A DNA stretch of 64,000 bases from Brucella daejeonensis (lineage in GTDB: Bacteria; Pseudomonadota; Alphaproteobacteria; Rhizobiales; Rhizobiaceae): contig NZ_JACIJG010000004.1 in the NCBI RefSeq assembly GCF_014199265.1, positions 1-64,000 on the forward strand, written 5' to 3'. This document shows, piece after piece, positions 3,028-34,213 of the stretch. Below the pieces are notes generated by a model. The model was given only the letters and a program-made list of their open reading frames with translations. It was not told the DNA's origin and ran no database searches. Position numbers and translations under genes: made by a program. Position 1 is the stretch's first letter. Every line of letters begins with the position of its first letter.

Positions 3028-5166
3028 TCAGCGGCGTCCATGGATCAGGTCGGCCTGAATGTCGGCGCTGCCTGTCAGGCGGGCTTTGTACACTTCGTAG
3101 TTTTCCATCACGCGTTGCACGTAATTGCGCGTTTCGGAGTAGGGAATGCGCTCGATCCAGTCGACCACCTCATCGACAGGCTTGCCGCGCGGGTCGCCAT
3201 ATTTCTCGATCCATTCCGAAGCGCGGCGGGGACCGGCGTTATAACCCGCGAATGTAAGCACATAGGAACCGTCGAAGCGGTCGAGCTGTTCTCCGAGGAA
3301 ATGCGCGCCAAGCGTTGCATTATAGCCTGCATCCGTCGTCAGGCGCGGGGCCGAAAAACTCATTCCGTTCCTTGCCGCCACGCTTCTGGCCGTTGCCGGC
3401 ATGAGCTGTAGCAGGCCACGCGCGCCGGCCTTCGATACGGCGCCGACGTTGAATTCGCTTTCCTGCCGGGCGATTGCATAGGCCAACGCCTTGCCCGACC
3501 CGCTGATATTCGCGCTGGCAGGAATGGCGCCGAGCGGATGTGAAAGCGCGCCTGTGTCGAAACCGCGTAGGGCTGCGGTCTTGCCGACCCGCAAGGCGAG
3601 ATAATGATTCTCGTTGCGCTCAGCCATGACGGCCAGCAAAGCCAGTTCGCCGACGCTATCCATCTCTTGCGAAAGCTGGCTGTAAAGTGCGGTGGCGCGA
3701 TTGCCGTATCCAACCTGCTCGAGGCGTTTGATGGCCTGTACCGCAGGGCGTCCGGCAAAACGGACGCGGTCGGCGTCGGTCGGTTTCGGATAGATGAACT
3801 CCGGGGCCTTCTCATGCAGTTTGGCGGCGGCTAGCTGTCCGTAGAAAGTGGTCCCGAAATGTGCCGAACGGCGATAATAGCTGCTGGCATCACCGCCGGA
3901 ACCCGCCTCGGCAGAGCGGCCGAGCCAGTAAAAAGCGCGCGATGCGGAGATCGGGCGCGAGGAAATTTCCGCGATCCTGGCGAAGTGTGAAGCCGCTGTC
4001 CCGGGCTGCTTCAAGGCCCGCAGCGCGTACCATCCTGCGTGGAATTCAGCCTCTGCGGCCATGCCGGGCGATTCTGCCGCGTGAGCGGCGACGAGCTTAT
4101 AGGCAAGCTGCGGCTTTCCGAGGTCGAGAAGCTCACGGGATAGAATACGGCGCTCGATCCACCAGGCATCCGCGTCGATCAGGGCAGGGGCCTGACGCGG
4201 GGCCTTCAGCATGAGGTCGGTGGCTTCACTGTAGCGTTCGGCACGGCGAAGATAGCGGATTTTCAGAAACAGATAGGCCAGGTTTCCCTGCCATGTGCTG
4301 TCAACGCTTGCAATTGCCTTGGCGGCATTCGGAGATTTTTGCGCGACGGCTGCAAAGGCATTGTAGAGCGACTGGGCCTGGGCCGGTCCAGCCAACAACT
4401 TTGCCGATTTCAGACGGTTATTATAAAGCGAGCGCAGAATGCGGCGCTGATGATCCTCGCGTGTCAGAACGCCGGAGAATTCCTTCAATACTTTCTGCTC
4501 GTCCTCGGTGGAAAGGCGTTGCGTCGACCACCACGGCGAAAGAAGTCCGCGGGCCTTGTTCGCGTTTCCGGTGTTCACATAGGCACGGGCAAGCAGGATC
4601 ATGCCTTCTGTCGTCAGGGGACGTGTGTTGCCAAATGCGGCAATCACCGTTCCCGGCGCGGGATTCTCCCTTGCCAGCGCCCGTTCCGAATTGCGGCGCA
4701 GGGCAGATAGTCCCGGCCAGCCGCGCAGTTCGGTCGTGGCGGCCGCGATTTCAGCGCTCGGCACGGCATCCAGCCCGGATGTAGCAATAGCCCAGCTCAG
4801 TATCTGCCGGTCAAGCGAGCCATTGGGCATTCCATTGCGCAATGCGATGGCGTTTGCGACGTCCCGCGAAGAAAGCGAATCGAGACCGCTCTTCAGCGTT
4901 CCGCCGATCACGGCGGGGGTCTCGAGACGGCTTACCGCCGACGTGACGACAGGATCGGATGTGGCGGGCCGGGGCGTCGGCGTAACCAGATTTATCGGCG
5001 ACTGGCGCGTCGCTGTCGGTGCGAAAGGGCGCGCGAGCGGTGTCGGCACGTCTGTCGACAGGGAAGACTGGGCAAGAGAAACGGAAGGCTGAACGGCAAC
5101 CGCAACGAGGCAACTCGCGAGAAGCGCTCTTGTCGTCATGGAAATTGCTGCGGCGTATTTAAACAT
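3028..5166 (-). CDS. slt: Soluble lytic murein transglycosylase (Slt70-like)
   Basis: This 712-residue periplasmic enzyme cleaves the MurNAc-GlcNAc bond of peptidoglycan with formation of 1,6-anhydro ends. An N-terminal signal peptide (hydrophobic run ending SLAQSS, about residues 1-35) is followed by a long alpha-helical superhelical region typical of Slt70. The C-terminal catalytic domain carries the motif ARQESEFN, with the catalytic Glu near residue 568, then KAGARGLLQLMP, and later TFAGYNAGP. An internal Met at residue 10 begins a more compact signal peptide and is an alternative start. The gene converges on the helix-hairpin-helix gene and is divergent from dapA. The length fits the family. 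Confidence 0.93.
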   Translation of the reverse strand: MFKYAAAISMTTRALLASCLVAVAVQPSVSLAQSSLSTDVPTPLARPFAPTATRQSPINLVTPTPRPATSDPVVTSAVSRLETPAVIGGTLKSGLDSLSSRDVANAIALRNGMPNGSLDRQILSWAIATSGLDAVPSAEIAAATTELRGWPGLSALRRNSERALARENPAPGTVIAAFGNTRPLTTEGMILLARAYVNTGNANKARGLLSPWWSTQRLSTEDEQKVLKEFSGVLTREDHQRRILRSLYNNRLKSAKLLAGPAQAQSLYNAFAAVAQKSPNAAKAIASVDSTWQGNLAYLFLKIRYLRRAERYSEATDLMLKAPRQAPALIDADAWWIERRILSRELLDLGKPQLAYKLVAAHAAESPGMAAEAEFHAGWYALRALKQPGTAASHFARIAEISSRPISASRAFYWLGRSAEAGSGGDASSYYRRSAHFGTTFYGQLAAAKLHEKAPEFIYPKPTDADRVRFAGRPAVQAIKRLEQVGYGNRATALYSQLSQEMDSVGELALLAVMAERNENHYLALRVGKTAALRGFDTGALSHPLGAIPASANISGSGKALAYAIARQESEFNVGAVSKAGARGLLQLMPATARSVAARNGMSFSAPRLTTDAGYNATLGAHFLGEQLDRFDGSYVLTFAGYNAGPRRASEWIEKYGDPRGKPVDEVVDWIERIPYSETRNYVQRVMENYEVYKARLTGSADIQADLIHGRR

Positions 5167-30258: not shown

Positions 30259-31776
30259 ATGGCTTATGCGCCGCAACTGCGTTTGTACAACACGCTGACC
30301 CGCACGAAAGAGGAGTTTTCTCCCATCGATCCGAACAATGTGCGCATGTATGTCTGCGGGCCGACCGTTTACGATTTCGCGCATATCGGCAATGCCCGTC
30401 CGGTGATCGTGTTCGACGTGCTGTTTCGCCTGTTGCGCCATGTCTACGGCGCGGAGCATGTCACCTATGCGCGCAACATCACGGATGTCGATGACAAGAT
30501 CAACGCTCGCGCCGCGCGCGATTACCCCGATTTACCGTTTAATGAAGCCATTCGCCGGGTGACCGAAAGCACCAATGCGCAGTTTCAGGCCGATGTGACG
30601 GCACTCGGTAATCTCCAGCCGAGCGTTCAGCCGCGCGCGACCGAGCATATGGACGAGATGCGCGCCATGATCGACCGTCTCGTCAGGCTGGGCGTCGCCT
30701 ATGTGGCCGAGAACCATGTCCTCTTCTCGCCTTCCGCCATGAACGAACGCAAGGGGCCGCGCTATGGCGCTCTCGCTCGCCGCTCGCTTGACGAGATGCT
30801 GGCCGGCGCGCGCGTCGACGTGGCTTCCTACAAACGGGACGAAATGGATTTCGTTTTGTGGAAACCGTCGAAAGAGGGTGAGCCGGGCTGGCCTTCTCCG
30901 GCAGGGATCGAGGTGCTCGGTCGTCCGGGCTGGCATATCGAGTGCTCCGCCATGTCGATGGCAAAGCTGCTTGAGCCTTTTGGCGGCGGCCTGAAATGCG
31001 ACGACCCGCTCAGGAACCAGTTCGATATTCACGGCGGCGGCATCGATCTGGTCTTTCCGCATCACGAGAACGAGATCGCACAGTCATGCTGCGCGCTGGG
31101 CACCGAGCTGATGGCCAGCATCTGGATGCATAACGGCTTCTTGCAGGTCGAAGGGCAGAAAATGTCGAAATCGCTCGGCAATTTCATCACCATTCGCGAC
31201 GTGCTGAACGATGGCCTGCCGCAATTGGGCGAGTGGGAAGACCGCGACGCACACGACCGCTGGGTCGGCCTTGCCGCACGGCTGTCGATGCTACAGACGC
31301 ATTATCGCGAGCCTATCAACTGGACGGCGCAGCGCCTGATGGAATCCGCCGACGAATTGCACCGCTGGTACGGCCTGTTGCGTGACAGGAATTTCGTCGC
31401 GCCGCAGGTGCTCACCGCTGCTGGAGAAGTCGTTGAAGCACTTTCCGACGATCTGAATAGCTGGACGGCGATCACGGCATTGCGCAAGGCGTTCAAGGCG
31501 AAAGACGTTGCCAGTCTGGGCGAGGGCATGGCGCTTCTGGGCCTGTTCGATCCCTATTTCGTTGAGACGGCGGACGTGCCGGTCTTTGCCAGGGCAGAGG
31601 TGGACAGTGAAGCGATCGAAAAGCGCGTCGCGGAGCGCCTTCGTTTCATTCACGAGAAGAACTGGGCCGAGGCCGACCGCATTCGCGACGAGTTGCTCAA
31701 GGAGGGCATCCAGCTCAAGGATGGCAAGGACCCCGAGACGGGCGAGCGTATAACAAGTTGGGATGTGGTAGGTTAG
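30259..31776 (+). CDS. cysS: Cysteinyl-tRNA synthetase
   Basis: CysRS charges tRNA-Cys. The 505-residue protein has the class I motifs: HIGN in [12 protein letters not shown] near residue 40 and KMSKSLGN near residue 304. The zinc ligands are visible as the Cys in [10 protein letters not shown], the Cys in WHIECSAMS and HHENEIAQ. The start at 30259 ([11 protein letters not shown]) follows GGGGAA and gives the conserved N terminus. The stop codon TAG is formed at the edge of the palindromic element at 31773, so the natural C terminus may have been slightly altered by insertion. Confidence 0.96.
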
Positions 31777-31850
31777 TGGATTGAATTTGACGTTTGAATG
31801 CCGACTGAATGAGATGCTGTTTCAAACGTCAAATTCGAAAAATCCACTAG
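31773..31850. repeat. 78-bp palindromic element, copy 2 (inverted)
   Basis: This is the reverse complement of 2945-3022 with two differences by eye (T for C at the first base, and one internal base). The ends are TTAGTGG and CCACTAG, with TA on both sides. Its first bases provide the TAG stop of cysS at 31774-31776, and it lies 29 bases before the next gene. Confidence 0.88.
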
Positions 31851-31879: not shown

Positions 31880-32368
31880 ATGACGCTCGATAACAGACCG
31901 ATCTATACGGGCGGTTGCCAGTGCGGTGCGGTCCGCTTTCGTGTCGAAGGCGCGTTGGGGTCGGCATCGATCTGCCATTGCCGCATGTGCCAGAAGGCTT
32001 TCGGCAATTTCTACGCACCGCTGGTGTCCTTGAGGGAAGCCAAACTCGAATGGACGCGAAACGAGCCGAAGCGTTTCCAGTCGTCCAATCATGTGAAGCG
32101 CGGCTTCTGTCCCGAATGCGGCACGCCGCTCACCTATGAAGCGCCCGACGGGATCGCGCTTGCCATCGGGGCTTTCGATGCGCCCGAGGAAATTGAACCG
32201 ACCATTCAGTGGGGGGTCGAAAAACGGCTGCCCTATCTGGATGAACTTGCAAATCTTCCCGGCTACAATACGGAGCGCGACCCGGAGAGTATCGAGTTCG
32301 TAAGGACGATGATTTCCTACCAGCATCCCGATTACGATACTGAAAGCTGGCCGCAACAGCAAGGTTGA
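31880..32368 (+). CDS. GFA-type (glutathione-dependent formaldehyde-activating-like) zinc protein
   Basis: The 162-residue protein has the GFA (CENP-V/Gfa) zinc pattern: GGCQCGAVRF (C-x-C), CHCRMCQKAFG, then FCPECGTPLTYE (C-x2-C). The Gfa enzyme joins formaldehyde to glutathione, but most family members are untested. Start at 31880 follows GGAGGGGAT; the longer frame upstream is inside the palindromic element and so is not original. The gene ends 31 bases before the duplicated cimA start. Confidence 0.85.
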   Translation: MTLDNRPIYTGGCQCGAVRFRVEGALGSASICHCRMCQKAFGNFYAPLVSLREAKLEWTRNEPKRFQSSNHVKRGFCPECGTPLTYEAPDGIALAIGAFDAPEEIEPTIQWGVEKRLPYLDELANLPGYNTERDPESIEFVRTMISYQHPDYDTESWPQQQG

Positions 32369-32399
32369 CCGGACCGCACACCCACCGACAGGCAGGCAA

Positions 32400-32600
32400 A
32401 TGACACGCGAGCGCATCTATATCTACGACACGACCCTCAGGGATGGACAACAGACGCTCACCGTCCGCCCGCAGCCGCGAAGCGTGCGAGGACGGACAGA
32501 ACTGAAATCAGCCACCCGCCCGCAGCCGCGAAGCGTGCGAGGACGGACAGATGTTGGAACGGGCGGTTGTTGTCCAGCCAGAATGCGGGGAGCAAGATAA
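32400..32600 (+). CDS. Leader ORF made of the duplicated CimA N terminus
   Basis: This 66-codon frame encodes the first 19 residues of CimA (MTRERIYIYDTTLRDGQQT) and then runs in a different frame through the two REP units, giving arginine-rich sequence with the repeat RPQPRSVRGRT. Its TAA stop shares its last base with the ATG of cimA (TAATG), so ribosomes finishing it are placed on the real start. It is not expected to have enzyme activity. It may be a relic of the duplication or may act as a translational coupler; which cannot be decided from sequence. Confidence 0.55.
   Translation: MTRERIYIYDTTLRDGQQTLTVRPQPRSVRGRTELKSATRPQPRSVRGRTDVGTGGCCPARMRGAR
32465..32551. repeat. Two identical 36-bp REP units, 51-bp period
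   Basis: Copies at 32465-32500 and 32516-32551 are identical. Each with its flank can fold into a hairpin (GTCCGCCCGCA against TGCGAGGACGGAC). They lie between the duplicated cimA starts. Confidence 0.85.
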
Positions 32601-34213
32601 TGACACGCGAGCGCATCTATATCTACGACACGACCCTCAGGGATGGACAACAGACGCCCGGCGTTGACTTTTCTGTAGAAGACAAGAAAGCGATCGTCGT
32701 GCTGCTCGAAGAGCTTGGTGTTGATTATGTCGAGGGCGGCTATCCGGGCGCCAATCCGACCGATACGGCCTTCTTCAAGCGCCGCCAGACTGCGCGGGCC
32801 AAATTTGCCGCTTTCGGCATGACAAAGCGCTCGGGCGTTTCGGCTTCGAACGATCCCGGCCTGTCCAGCCTGTTGCAGGCCTCCGCCGATGCCGTGTGTT
32901 TTGTGGCGAAGAGCTGGGATTACCATGTCCGCCTCGCACTCGGCTGCACCAACGAGGAAAATCTGGAATCGATCACGGCCTCCGTCACCGCCGCGCGCAT
33001 GGCGGGGCGGGAAGCACTGGTCGATTGCGAACATTTTTTCGACGGTTACAAGGCCAACCCGGAATATGCGCTCGCCTGCGCCAAGGCCGCTTATTCGGCC
33101 GGAGCGCGCTGGGTCGTGCTCTGCGATACGAATGGCGGCACGCAGCCTTCGGAGATCGCAGAAATCGTCGGCGTGGTCAAAGCGGTCGTTCCGGGAGAAA
33201 GCCTGGGTATTCATGCCCATAACGACACCGAACAGGCGGTAGCCGTTTCGCTGGCGGCAATCGACGCCGGCGTTCGTCAGGTACAGGGAACGCTCAACGG
33301 TATTGGCGAACGCTGCGGCAATGCCAATCTCGTTTCGCTGATCCCGACGCTGGCGCTGAAGCCTTACTGGGCCGAGCGTTTCAAACTGGGGATCAAGCCC
33401 GGTGCCTTGAAGAGCATCACGCGCATTTCGCGCGCGTTCGACGATGTTCTGAACCGTCTCCCGACGGAGCAGGCGCCTTACACCGGTAGCTCCGCTTTTG
33501 CGACGAAGGCCGGAATTCATGCCTCGGCGCTGCTCAAGGAACCGCAGACCTACGAGCATGTGCCGCCGGAATCGGTCGGCAACAACCGGCGCGTCATGGT
33601 GTCGGATCAGGGCGGAAAGTCCAATTTCATCGCGGAACTGGAGCGTCGGGGCATTCGTGTCGCCAAGGACGATGTGCGCCTCGATACGCTGATCGCTCTG
33701 GTCAAGGAGCGCGAGGCCGAAGGCTATGCTTACGAGGGGGCGGATGCGAGTTTCGAGCTTCTTGCCCGCAATATGCTGAATCCGCAGCCCGAATTCTTCA
33801 AGGTCGACTCTTTCCGCTGCCTCGTCGAGCGCCGTTTCGATGCCAACGGCATGTTGAAGACCGTGTCCGAAGCCGTCGTCAAGGTCGAGGTCGATGGCGA
33901 AGTGCGCATGTCGGTGGCAGAAGGGCATGGCCCGGTCAATGCGCTCGATATTGCGCTGCGCAAGGATCTCGGGCGCTATCAGGCGGAAATCGAGGATCTC
34001 GAACTCGTCGACTTCAAGGTGCGTATCCTCAATGGCGGCACGGCTGCCATCACGCGCGTCCTGATCGAATCCGGCGACGTGACCGGCGCTCGCTGGCGGA
34101 CGGTCGGTGTGTCCGACAATATCATCGATGCGTCTTTCCAGGCATTGATGGATTCCGTCAATTACAAACTGATGAAGAACCGCGCCATGGCCGGACTGGC
34201 CGCCGCCGAATAA
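32600..34213 (+). CDS. cimA: (R)-citramalate synthase
   Basis: CimA joins acetyl-CoA and pyruvate to citramalate, a threonine-independent route to 2-oxobutanoate for isoleucine. The 537 residues match the long cimA-type of the isopropylmalate synthase family: IYDTTLRDGQQTPGVDF at the N terminus, a TIM barrel with HAHNDT near residue 210 as metal ligands, an internal linker and a C-terminal regulatory domain (about 400-530). A family homocitrate or isopropylmalate role cannot be fully excluded. GGGGAG lies upstream, and the ATG overlaps the leader ORF stop as TAATG. The duplication upstream is discussed separately. Confidence 0.9.
   Translation: MTRERIYIYDTTLRDGQQTPGVDFSVEDKKAIVVLLEELGVDYVEGGYPGANPTDTAFFKRRQTARAKFAAFGMTKRSGVSASNDPGLSSLLQASADAVCFVAKSWDYHVRLALGCTNEENLESITASVTAARMAGREALVDCEHFFDGYKANPEYALACAKAAYSAGARWVVLCDTNGGTQPSEIAEIVGVVKAVVPGESLGIHAHNDTEQAVAVSLAAIDAGVRQVQGTLNGIGERCGNANLVSLIPTLALKPYWAERFKLGIKPGALKSITRISRAFDDVLNRLPTEQAPYTGSSAFATKAGIHASALLKEPQTYEHVPPESVGNNRRVMVSDQGGKSNFIAELERRGIRVAKDDVRLDTLIALVKEREAEGYAYEGADASFELLARNMLNPQPEFFKVDSFRCLVERRFDANGMLKTVSEAVVKVEVDGEVRMSVAEGHGPVNALDIALRKDLGRYQAEIEDLELVDFKVRILNGGTAAITRVLIESGDVTGARWRTVGVSDNIIDASFQALMDSVNYKLMKNRAMAGLAAAE

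What the first reader, a model, noticed from the sequence alone, without database searches (positions are those of the whole stretch)
32399..32657. Duplicated cimA start creates a leader ORF coupled to the real gene by TAATG
Fifty-nine bases, from one base before the ATG through codon 19, occur twice and are identical, offset by 200 bases. The upstream copy opens a 66-codon ORF that leaves the cimA frame, crosses two REP units, and stops with TAA sharing a base with the true ATG. The upstream copy sits at the position expected for the original start, 31 bases after the previous gene. Either a duplication rescued a REP insertion in an essential biosynthetic gene, or the leader tunes CimA translation. 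Intact coupling geometry after such an event is noteworthy.
Basis: partly seen in the sequence, partly recalled or inferred. Interest (0 to 1): 0.7.

Follow-up and report, generated by a model that had tools for sequence, protein, structure and literature searches.

The report
Duplicated gene start forms coupled leader
In some relatives of Brucella the first 19 codons of a biosynthesis gene are present twice, and the extra copy, with a small hairpin behind it, makes a short upstream reading frame that ends exactly on the real start codon; the same layout recurs at a second gene.

Summary
Nine of 35 genomes of the genus carry the leader at cimA: 49 codons in eight, 66 in the window through an in-frame 51-nt tandem repeat; in all nine a TAA or TGA stop shares its last base with the cimA ATG. 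The other 26 have one start.

Segment 32560-32580 is complementary to cimA codons 14-21 and covaries with them, suggesting a helix that hinders the start until the leader is translated. The hairpin is no dispersed REP: in the genus I found it at two loci only, cimA and glyQ-glyS. At glyS, four of 34 genomes also have a duplicated gene start with a 37-codon leader ending in TGATG.

Best reading: a palindromic insert with gene-start duplication made a self-derived leader cistron, kept in frame because cimA then depends on translational coupling, and often lost again between its direct repeats. Coupling, occlusion and loss are inferred from sequence, folding and trees; no expression data were available, and no regulating signal was found.

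The parts
31880..32368 (+). gfa, glutathione-dependent formaldehyde-activating enzyme family, the gene before the leader
   Evidence: Pfam PF04828, E 2.2e-23
32382..32397 (+). conserved block CCACCGACAGGCAGGC before the ancestral start (here before copy 1)
   Evidence: 9 of 9 carriers before copy 1, 24 of 26 non-carriers before the only start
32399..32457 (+). copy 1 of the cimA start, identical to 32599-32657
32400..32600 (+). leader ORF, 66 codons, TAA overlapping the cimA ATG; 49 codons in eight relatives
32463..32497 (+). hairpin unit 1 (GTCCG...CGGAC), read in the leader as VRPQPRSVRGRT
   Evidence: 37-nt unit folds at -19.4 kcal/mol; one pair U-A in four and C-G in four of nine rows
32514..32548 (+). 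hairpin unit 2, from an in-frame 51-nt tandem duplication seen only in this genome among the nine; its two outer pairs are broken
32560..32580 (+). I2, segment complementary to cimA codons 14-21
32587..32592 (+). Shine-Dalgarno-like GGGGAG before cimA (recognised by eye)
   Evidence: the nine upstream stretches are printed
32598..32602 (+). TAATG: leader stop and cimA start share one base
32600..34213 (+). cimA, citramalate synthase, 537 aa
   Evidence: NCBIfam TIGR00977, 591 bits against a cut-off of 450
32640..32660 (+). D3, cimA segment that pairs with I2

Best explanation
A small palindromic insert, accompanied by duplication of the first 19 codons, turned the original cimA start into a leader cistron made of cimA's own beginning, the hairpin, a segment complementary to cimA, and a new Shine-Dalgarno-like sequence. 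Ribosomes start at the old site (copy 1), translate the leader, open the helix between I2 (32560-32580) and cimA codons 14-21, stop at TAATG/TGATG and restart or hand over at the shared ATG. CimA is then made only, or mainly, by translational coupling, so frame and spacing are kept by selection while the insert is present. Recombination between the direct repeats can remove it without a scar, which would explain its patchy survival. The same hairpin with the same kind of start duplication occurs at glyS. Shown: the anatomy, its conservation, the covariation, the scatter, the second locus. Inferred: that the leader is translated, that coupling drives CimA, that the helix hinders the start, that losses went through the repeats, and the order of events.
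For: Stop overlapping ATG2 in 9 of 9 carriers, by TAA in four and TGA in five; ATG1 to ATG2 149 nt in eight and 200 in the window. Insert open in the leader frame in 9 of 9, while each of the nine has a stop in at least one other frame. Copy 1 across genomes differs mostly synonymously: pairwise N 27, S 172, neutral N:S 3.03; own copy 1 against copy 2 N 4, S 32, plus 2 codons with several changes. Hairpin plus I2:D3: 91.5% of 306 cells paired against 31.0-39.2% when slid; 17 cells with both sides changed against 7.3 in shuffles, 0 of 500 as high; 6 pairs with such a change against 3.7, 16 of 500 as high. In I2:D3, 11 G-U cells and 1 A-C cell, with 22 other mismatches in 189 cells. Own-genome I2:D3 pairing beats swapped: -35.8 against -30.9 kcal/mol, permutation 0.0002, within clades 0.048. 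The consensus fold keeps 14 of the 21 I2:D3 pairs and pairs the GGG of the Shine-Dalgarno-like stretch with bases at the 3' end of I2. Mean opening energy of -20..+19: 17.2 free, 12.1 with the leader held open, 11.6 in the 26 non-carriers. Insert distances follow cimA (r 0.78) and gfa/cysS (r 0.86). glyS: hairpin in 8 of 34 genomes, all 8 with a stop overlapping the glyS ATG, against 17 of 26 without the hairpin; four have the duplicated start at 113 nt and a 37-codon leader.
Against: No expression data. The occlusion is a folding prediction, nearly absent in two of nine genomes including the window (G000 12.5 against 12.2, G020 16.0 against 15.1); the start codon lies in a loop of about 59 nt rather than inside the helix. 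In one search the number of further pair types does not exceed shuffles (13 against 13.2, 367 of 500). The swap test with longer slices is weaker within clades (0.165). I2 also matches copy 1 at 15-17 of 21 positions (18-19 with cimA), and copy 1:I2 pairing is better within clades than swapped (0.006), so a rival pairing with copy 1 is open. Covariation inside an inverted repeat can come from template-switch correction (PMC8794818, abstract and start of introduction seen). Hairpin codons show no amino-acid constraint (N 57, S 33, neutral 2.09) and the tail little (N 111, S 122, neutral 2.82). I2-like pairing is weak at glyS (shuffle fraction 0.007-0.23 in eight genomes). Two non-carriers, G029 and G018, show upstream pairing near carrier strength (-32.1, -27.7). 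26 of 35 genomes do without the leader.
Confidence: 0.62

Rival explanations
1. Tolerated insertion: the hairpin and start duplication bring no benefit. Frame and TAATG are kept only because breaking them would silence an amino-acid gene, and the insert is lost whenever a deletion between the repeats occurs. (This is compatible with the coupling mechanism above and differs only on benefit.)
For: 16 (rpoB tree), 11 (cimA) or 15 (gfa/cysS) losses if there was one gain; nine label changes on the rpoB tree, 500 of 500 shuffles as low. A like pattern at an unrelated gene, glyS. Hairpin and tail codons little constrained.
Against: I2:D3 covariation with 11 G-U against 1 A-C cell suggests upkeep of a structure, and survival with divergence like the neighbours' is hard for a pure burden.
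Confidence: 0.45
2. Signal-responsive attenuator: a ribosome stalled on copy 1, which contains two Ile codons, changes which of the alternating direct and inverted segments pair (D1:I1, I1:D2, D2:I2, I2:D3), so that CimA answers to isoleucine or another signal.
For: Segments can pair in alternative ways; I1:D2 swap test over all nine 0.009. CimA starts an isoleucine route (recalled).
Against: D1:I1 and D2:I2 swap tests give no signal (0.36 and 0.11). I2:D3 dominates in energy. Copy 1 repeats the normal cimA start and is not enriched in Ile. glyS shares the layout but not the pathway.
Confidence: 0.12
3. The pairing and its covariation are by-products of DNA template switching between inverted repeats, without RNA function.
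For: Template switching can create and mend inverted repeats (PMC8794818, abstract and start of introduction seen). Hairpin and cimA start resemble each other in some genomes.
Against: 11 G-U against 1 A-C cell (cells share ancestry) is not expected from DNA-level correction, and mismatches persist at the same columns. The resemblance of hairpin and cimA start varies from 0 to 440 of 500 shuffles as good for the direct and 7 to 471 for the inverse match.
Confidence: 0.2
4. Assembly artefact of one strain.
For: None found.
Against: Nine genomes with diverged copies.
Confidence: 0.01

Closest known systems
Translational coupling of overlapping genes, RNA-unfolding and scanning/reinitiation models (PMC12548453: abstract and section 8 read)
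   Same: One-base stop/start overlap; a structure around the downstream start that upstream translation would open.
   Different: The upstream cistron is a copy of the downstream gene's own start, apparently made by an insertion with duplication.
Leader genes adjacent to structural genes that raise translation by reinitiation (PMC4833913: passages read)
   Same: A short leader close to the start, no regulatory codon bias needed.
   Different: Leader genes there do not overlap the structural gene; here the leader overlaps by one base, is homologous to the gene and carries a hairpin.
REP and Rickettsia palindromic elements found in frame in genes (PMC3733652: passages and section 15 read)
   Same: A short palindrome read in frame inside coding sequence, as in the glyQ tail and the leader.
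   Different: Found at two loci only in this genus and tied to duplicated gene starts. The paper says CGTC repeats are missing in Brucellaceae, and that untagged REP-like families exist in Brucellae.
Translational attenuators such as ermC (recalled) and mgtQ-mgtB (PMC8092293: outline with short abstract seen)
   Same: A short ORF and alternative stem-loops before a regulated start.
   Different: No signal, stalling motif or supported switch between structures here.

Membership tests
Translationally coupled gene pair | Stop and start overlap or lie very close on the same strand | tested here: met
   9 of 9 carriers overlap by one base; that they share a transcript was not tested
Translationally coupled gene pair | Downstream start hindered by structure that upstream translation opens (one of the models) | tested here: inconclusive
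   Predicted mean opening energy 17.2 against 12.1, but nearly no difference in two of nine genomes
Translationally coupled gene pair | Downstream expression depends on upstream translation | not testable with these tools
   No expression data
REP / CGTC-tagged palindrome | Many dispersed copies in a genome | tested here: not met
   Own genome, up to 3 mismatches: long form only at cimA, short form only at glyS. Exact-arm pattern over 35 genomes: 14 places, all at these two loci. More diverged copies are not excluded
REP / CGTC-tagged palindrome | Unpaired CGTC tag at one end (as described in PMC3733652) | tested here: not met
   CGTC stands at the 5' end in one sequence type, but its GTC pairs in the predicted fold; the other type reads CGCC
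Rickettsia palindromic element-like in-frame insert | Palindrome read in frame within a coding sequence | tested here: met
   glyQ tails PSARSEARTD or PSDRSEART in G004, G006, G007, G024, G028; leader VRPQPRSVRGRT or ARPQPRSVRGRA. Homology to the Rickettsia elements was not tested
Amino-acid attenuator leader | Run of codons for the regulating amino acid | tested here: not met
   Nine leader peptides show two Ile inherited from the cimA start and no run; judged by eye
Rfam families | Match to a described RNA family | tested here: not met
   0 matches at E up to 1 for 32300-32760

The most novel reading that the evidence does not exclude
A class of palindromic inserts in the Brucella group duplicates the start of its target gene and so installs a self-derived leader cistron that captures the gene's translation through TAATG/TGATG coupling. 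It has happened at two unrelated genes (cimA, glyS). At cimA a complementary segment has then evolved that makes the gene depend on the leader, and the whole can be excised exactly between its own direct repeats.
Probability: 0.4. Interest if true: 0.75.

Novelty: new variant of a known kind. Interest (0 to 1): 0.6.

Why it matters
It suggests how an insertion at the very start of an important gene can survive: the copied start becomes a leader and the true gene is reached by coupling. If right, leader ORFs and coupled cistrons can arise in few steps from a gene's own sequence, and presence or absence in close relatives offers natural pairs to measure what coupling does. It also warns that annotated starts of such genes may be misread.

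Tried and rejected
Rejected: a dispersed REP family; a known RNA family; a known leader-peptide family (the leader gives only matches below cut-off, mostly the first strand of the synthase fold); an Ile attenuator. The cimA layout in other genera: of 80 named cimA loci (the best 80 of 584), 79 have no second YDTTLRDG-like motif within 700 nt upstream; the one that has it, L047, lies on a contig of the length of G023's. At least four of the 80 (L047, L048, L049, L052) match contigs of the genus by length. Hairpin in order samples: long form 4 of 397 genomes, three of them with 3 mismatches and not looked at; short form 1 of 397, the own genome. Model R1 hit 6 of 385 class genomes; the five outside the own genome are marginal (E 0.003-0.008), and the one aligned (L176) does not keep the hairpin. 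At most 10 candidates per genome were scored there, so misses are possible; 9 exact core sites, all at glyQ-glyS, and 23 one-mismatch sites, about as many as the backward control; I looked at eight of the 23 and saw no left arm. A scan of 468,301 bases of the own genome for gene starts duplicated at 60-319 nt gave cimA, glyS (that stretch was chosen because of the model hit) and one low-complexity repeat.

Weaker or redone steps: opening energy over -18..+12 gave a smaller contrast. Segment slices cut I1 too short and were redone. One search used a cimA frame off by one and was redone. Script 66 stopped with an error after two of five loci; one search did the rest. The notes written hold a hand count of 17 losses (16 on rpoB) and a wrong 'cimA 9 genomes' for (8 there, as G007 has a variant arm). 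G013 is missing from the rpoB and glyS sets; G001 and G006, assemblies with broken-up genes, were kept.

Papers: the listed rows of ten searches (where more papers matched, only the first 10-12 were listed) show no paper on a cimA or glyS leader or a start-duplicating insert. That speaks only for those searches of an open-licence library.

Full report
What is there. Between gfa and cimA the first 19 codons of cimA occur twice, identical over 59 bases, offset 200. Copy 1 opens a 66-codon frame whose TAA shares its last base with the real ATG at 32600. Gene names rest on family models: citramalate synthase, the gfa family, cysS upstream. Between the copies lie two tandem hairpin units (51-nt period), a 21-nt segment complementary to cimA codons 14-21, GGGGAG and TAATG.

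Conservation. Among 35 genomes of the genus, nine carry the arrangement. In eight carriers ATG1 to ATG2 is 149 nt and the leader 49 codons; the window has one extra in-frame 51-nt unit. All nine have the one-base overlap, four by TAA and five by TGA. The other 26 have one start, 29-50 nt after the end of the gfa match in 24 and 78 and 132 nt in two. The ancestral block marks copy 1 as the old position.

Age and scatter. On an rpoB tree of 34 rows the nine carriers need nine changes (shuffled mean 8.2); on the cimA and gfa/cysS trees seven each (98 and 90 of 500 shuffles as low). With one gain, 16 (rpoB), 11 (cimA) or 15 (gfa/cysS) losses are needed. Insert distances follow those of cimA (Mantel r 0.78, 0.0002) and gfa/cysS (r 0.86, 0 of 5000). 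The two insert types fall in the two main rpoB clades. I read this as an old insert, carried along with its neighbours and lost many times; exchange between species is not excluded, as the local trees differ from rpoB in places.

Constraint. Copy 1 varies mainly at synonymous sites (N 27, S 172 pairwise), the hairpin codons do not (N 57, S 33), the tail is in between (N 111, S 122). This may reflect selection on the peptide, on the initiation region, or past exchange with copy 2; pairwise counts are not independent. The complementary segment fits cimA better than copy 1 (18-19 against 15-17 of 21 positions), the difference lying mostly where it pairs with codons 20-21, beyond the duplicated part. 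One column pair shows A-U, C-G, U-A and U-G. Pairing is better within genomes than when swapped, though less clearly within clades. G-U exceeds A-C 11 to 1. The number of pair types does not exceed shuffles. Holding the leader open lowers the predicted cost of opening the cimA start from 17.2 to 12.1 kcal/mol on average, close to the 11.6 of the 26 genomes without the insert, but hardly in G000 and G020. The start lies in the loop of the helix, so the strength of occlusion is uncertain; the consensus fold pairs the Shine-Dalgarno-like GGG locally.

A second locus. A covariance model of the insert found one more place in the own genome, at the start of glyS; glyS and glyQ are named by NCBIfam. 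There G000 has the glyQ stop, a copy of the first codons of glyS, a shorter form of the same hairpin, a tail, TGATG and glyS. Over 34 genomes (no match in G013), eight carry the hairpin at this junction. Four of them (G000, G004, G021, G032) have the duplicated start at 113 nt with a 37-codon leader; four others (G006, G007, G024, G028) have glyQ extended in frame through the hairpin. All eight overlap the glyS ATG by one base, against 17 of 26 without the hairpin. G004 has two hairpins: glyQ-hairpin-tail-start copy-hairpin-tail-glyS. That suggests a path: hairpin at a junction, tandem duplication of hairpin plus start, then loss of the first hairpin. In G031 and G011 the tail exists without the hairpin, so at glyS the element may be the hairpin alone. 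The glyS hairpin shows no pair with both sides changed. A strong complementary segment is a feature of cimA and not clearly of glyS. Both loci carry a hairpin in two genomes only, G000 and G007.

Mechanism. The most likely working is translational coupling from the old start through the leader. The review PMC12548453 (abstract and section 8 read) describes unfolding and scanning models for such pairs; I cannot tell them apart here. I found no support for a signal-responsive switch. Whether the leader benefits the cell or is only tolerated is open; I put these near even.

Verdict. The leader idea is supported in outline; the REP idea needs correction, and the strain-specific rescue idea gives way to an old, patchy feature of the genus with a sister case at glyS.

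Noticed in passing
L181 1927-2040 (G000 contig C34 13426-13539): Second case of a duplicated gene start with hairpin and TGATG, at glyS; related states at the glyQ-glyS junction of seven other genomes.
   Followed up: yes
window 31774-31849: Long inverted repeat beginning at the cysS stop codon and ending about 30 nt before gfa; seen by eye, not tested.
   Followed up: no
L015 about 1369-1500 (G014): The gfa-cimA gap of this non-carrier is 132 nt from the end of the gfa match and holds a different palindrome-like stretch, seen by eye.
   Followed up: no
window 12185 and 12289: 25-nt exact direct repeat at spacing 104.
   Followed up: no
L218 and L225 (G031, G011), glyQ end: glyQ tails ending DAEGVR or DAEGVV with TAATG or TGATG but no hairpin: either the pre-insert state or remnants of loss.
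   Followed up: partly
L016 and L020 (non-carriers G018 and G029), upstream of cimA: The stretch upstream of cimA pairs with cimA codons nearly as strongly as in carriers (2 and 3 of 200 shuffles as low); unexplained.
   Followed up: no
L234 minus strand, about 3592-3700: Low-complexity tandem repeat picked up by the start-duplication scan.
   Followed up: partly
L013, L019, L165, L166 (G006, G001): cimA and rpoB matches broken into pieces in these two assemblies, perhaps sequencing frameshifts; kept in the counts.
   Followed up: no
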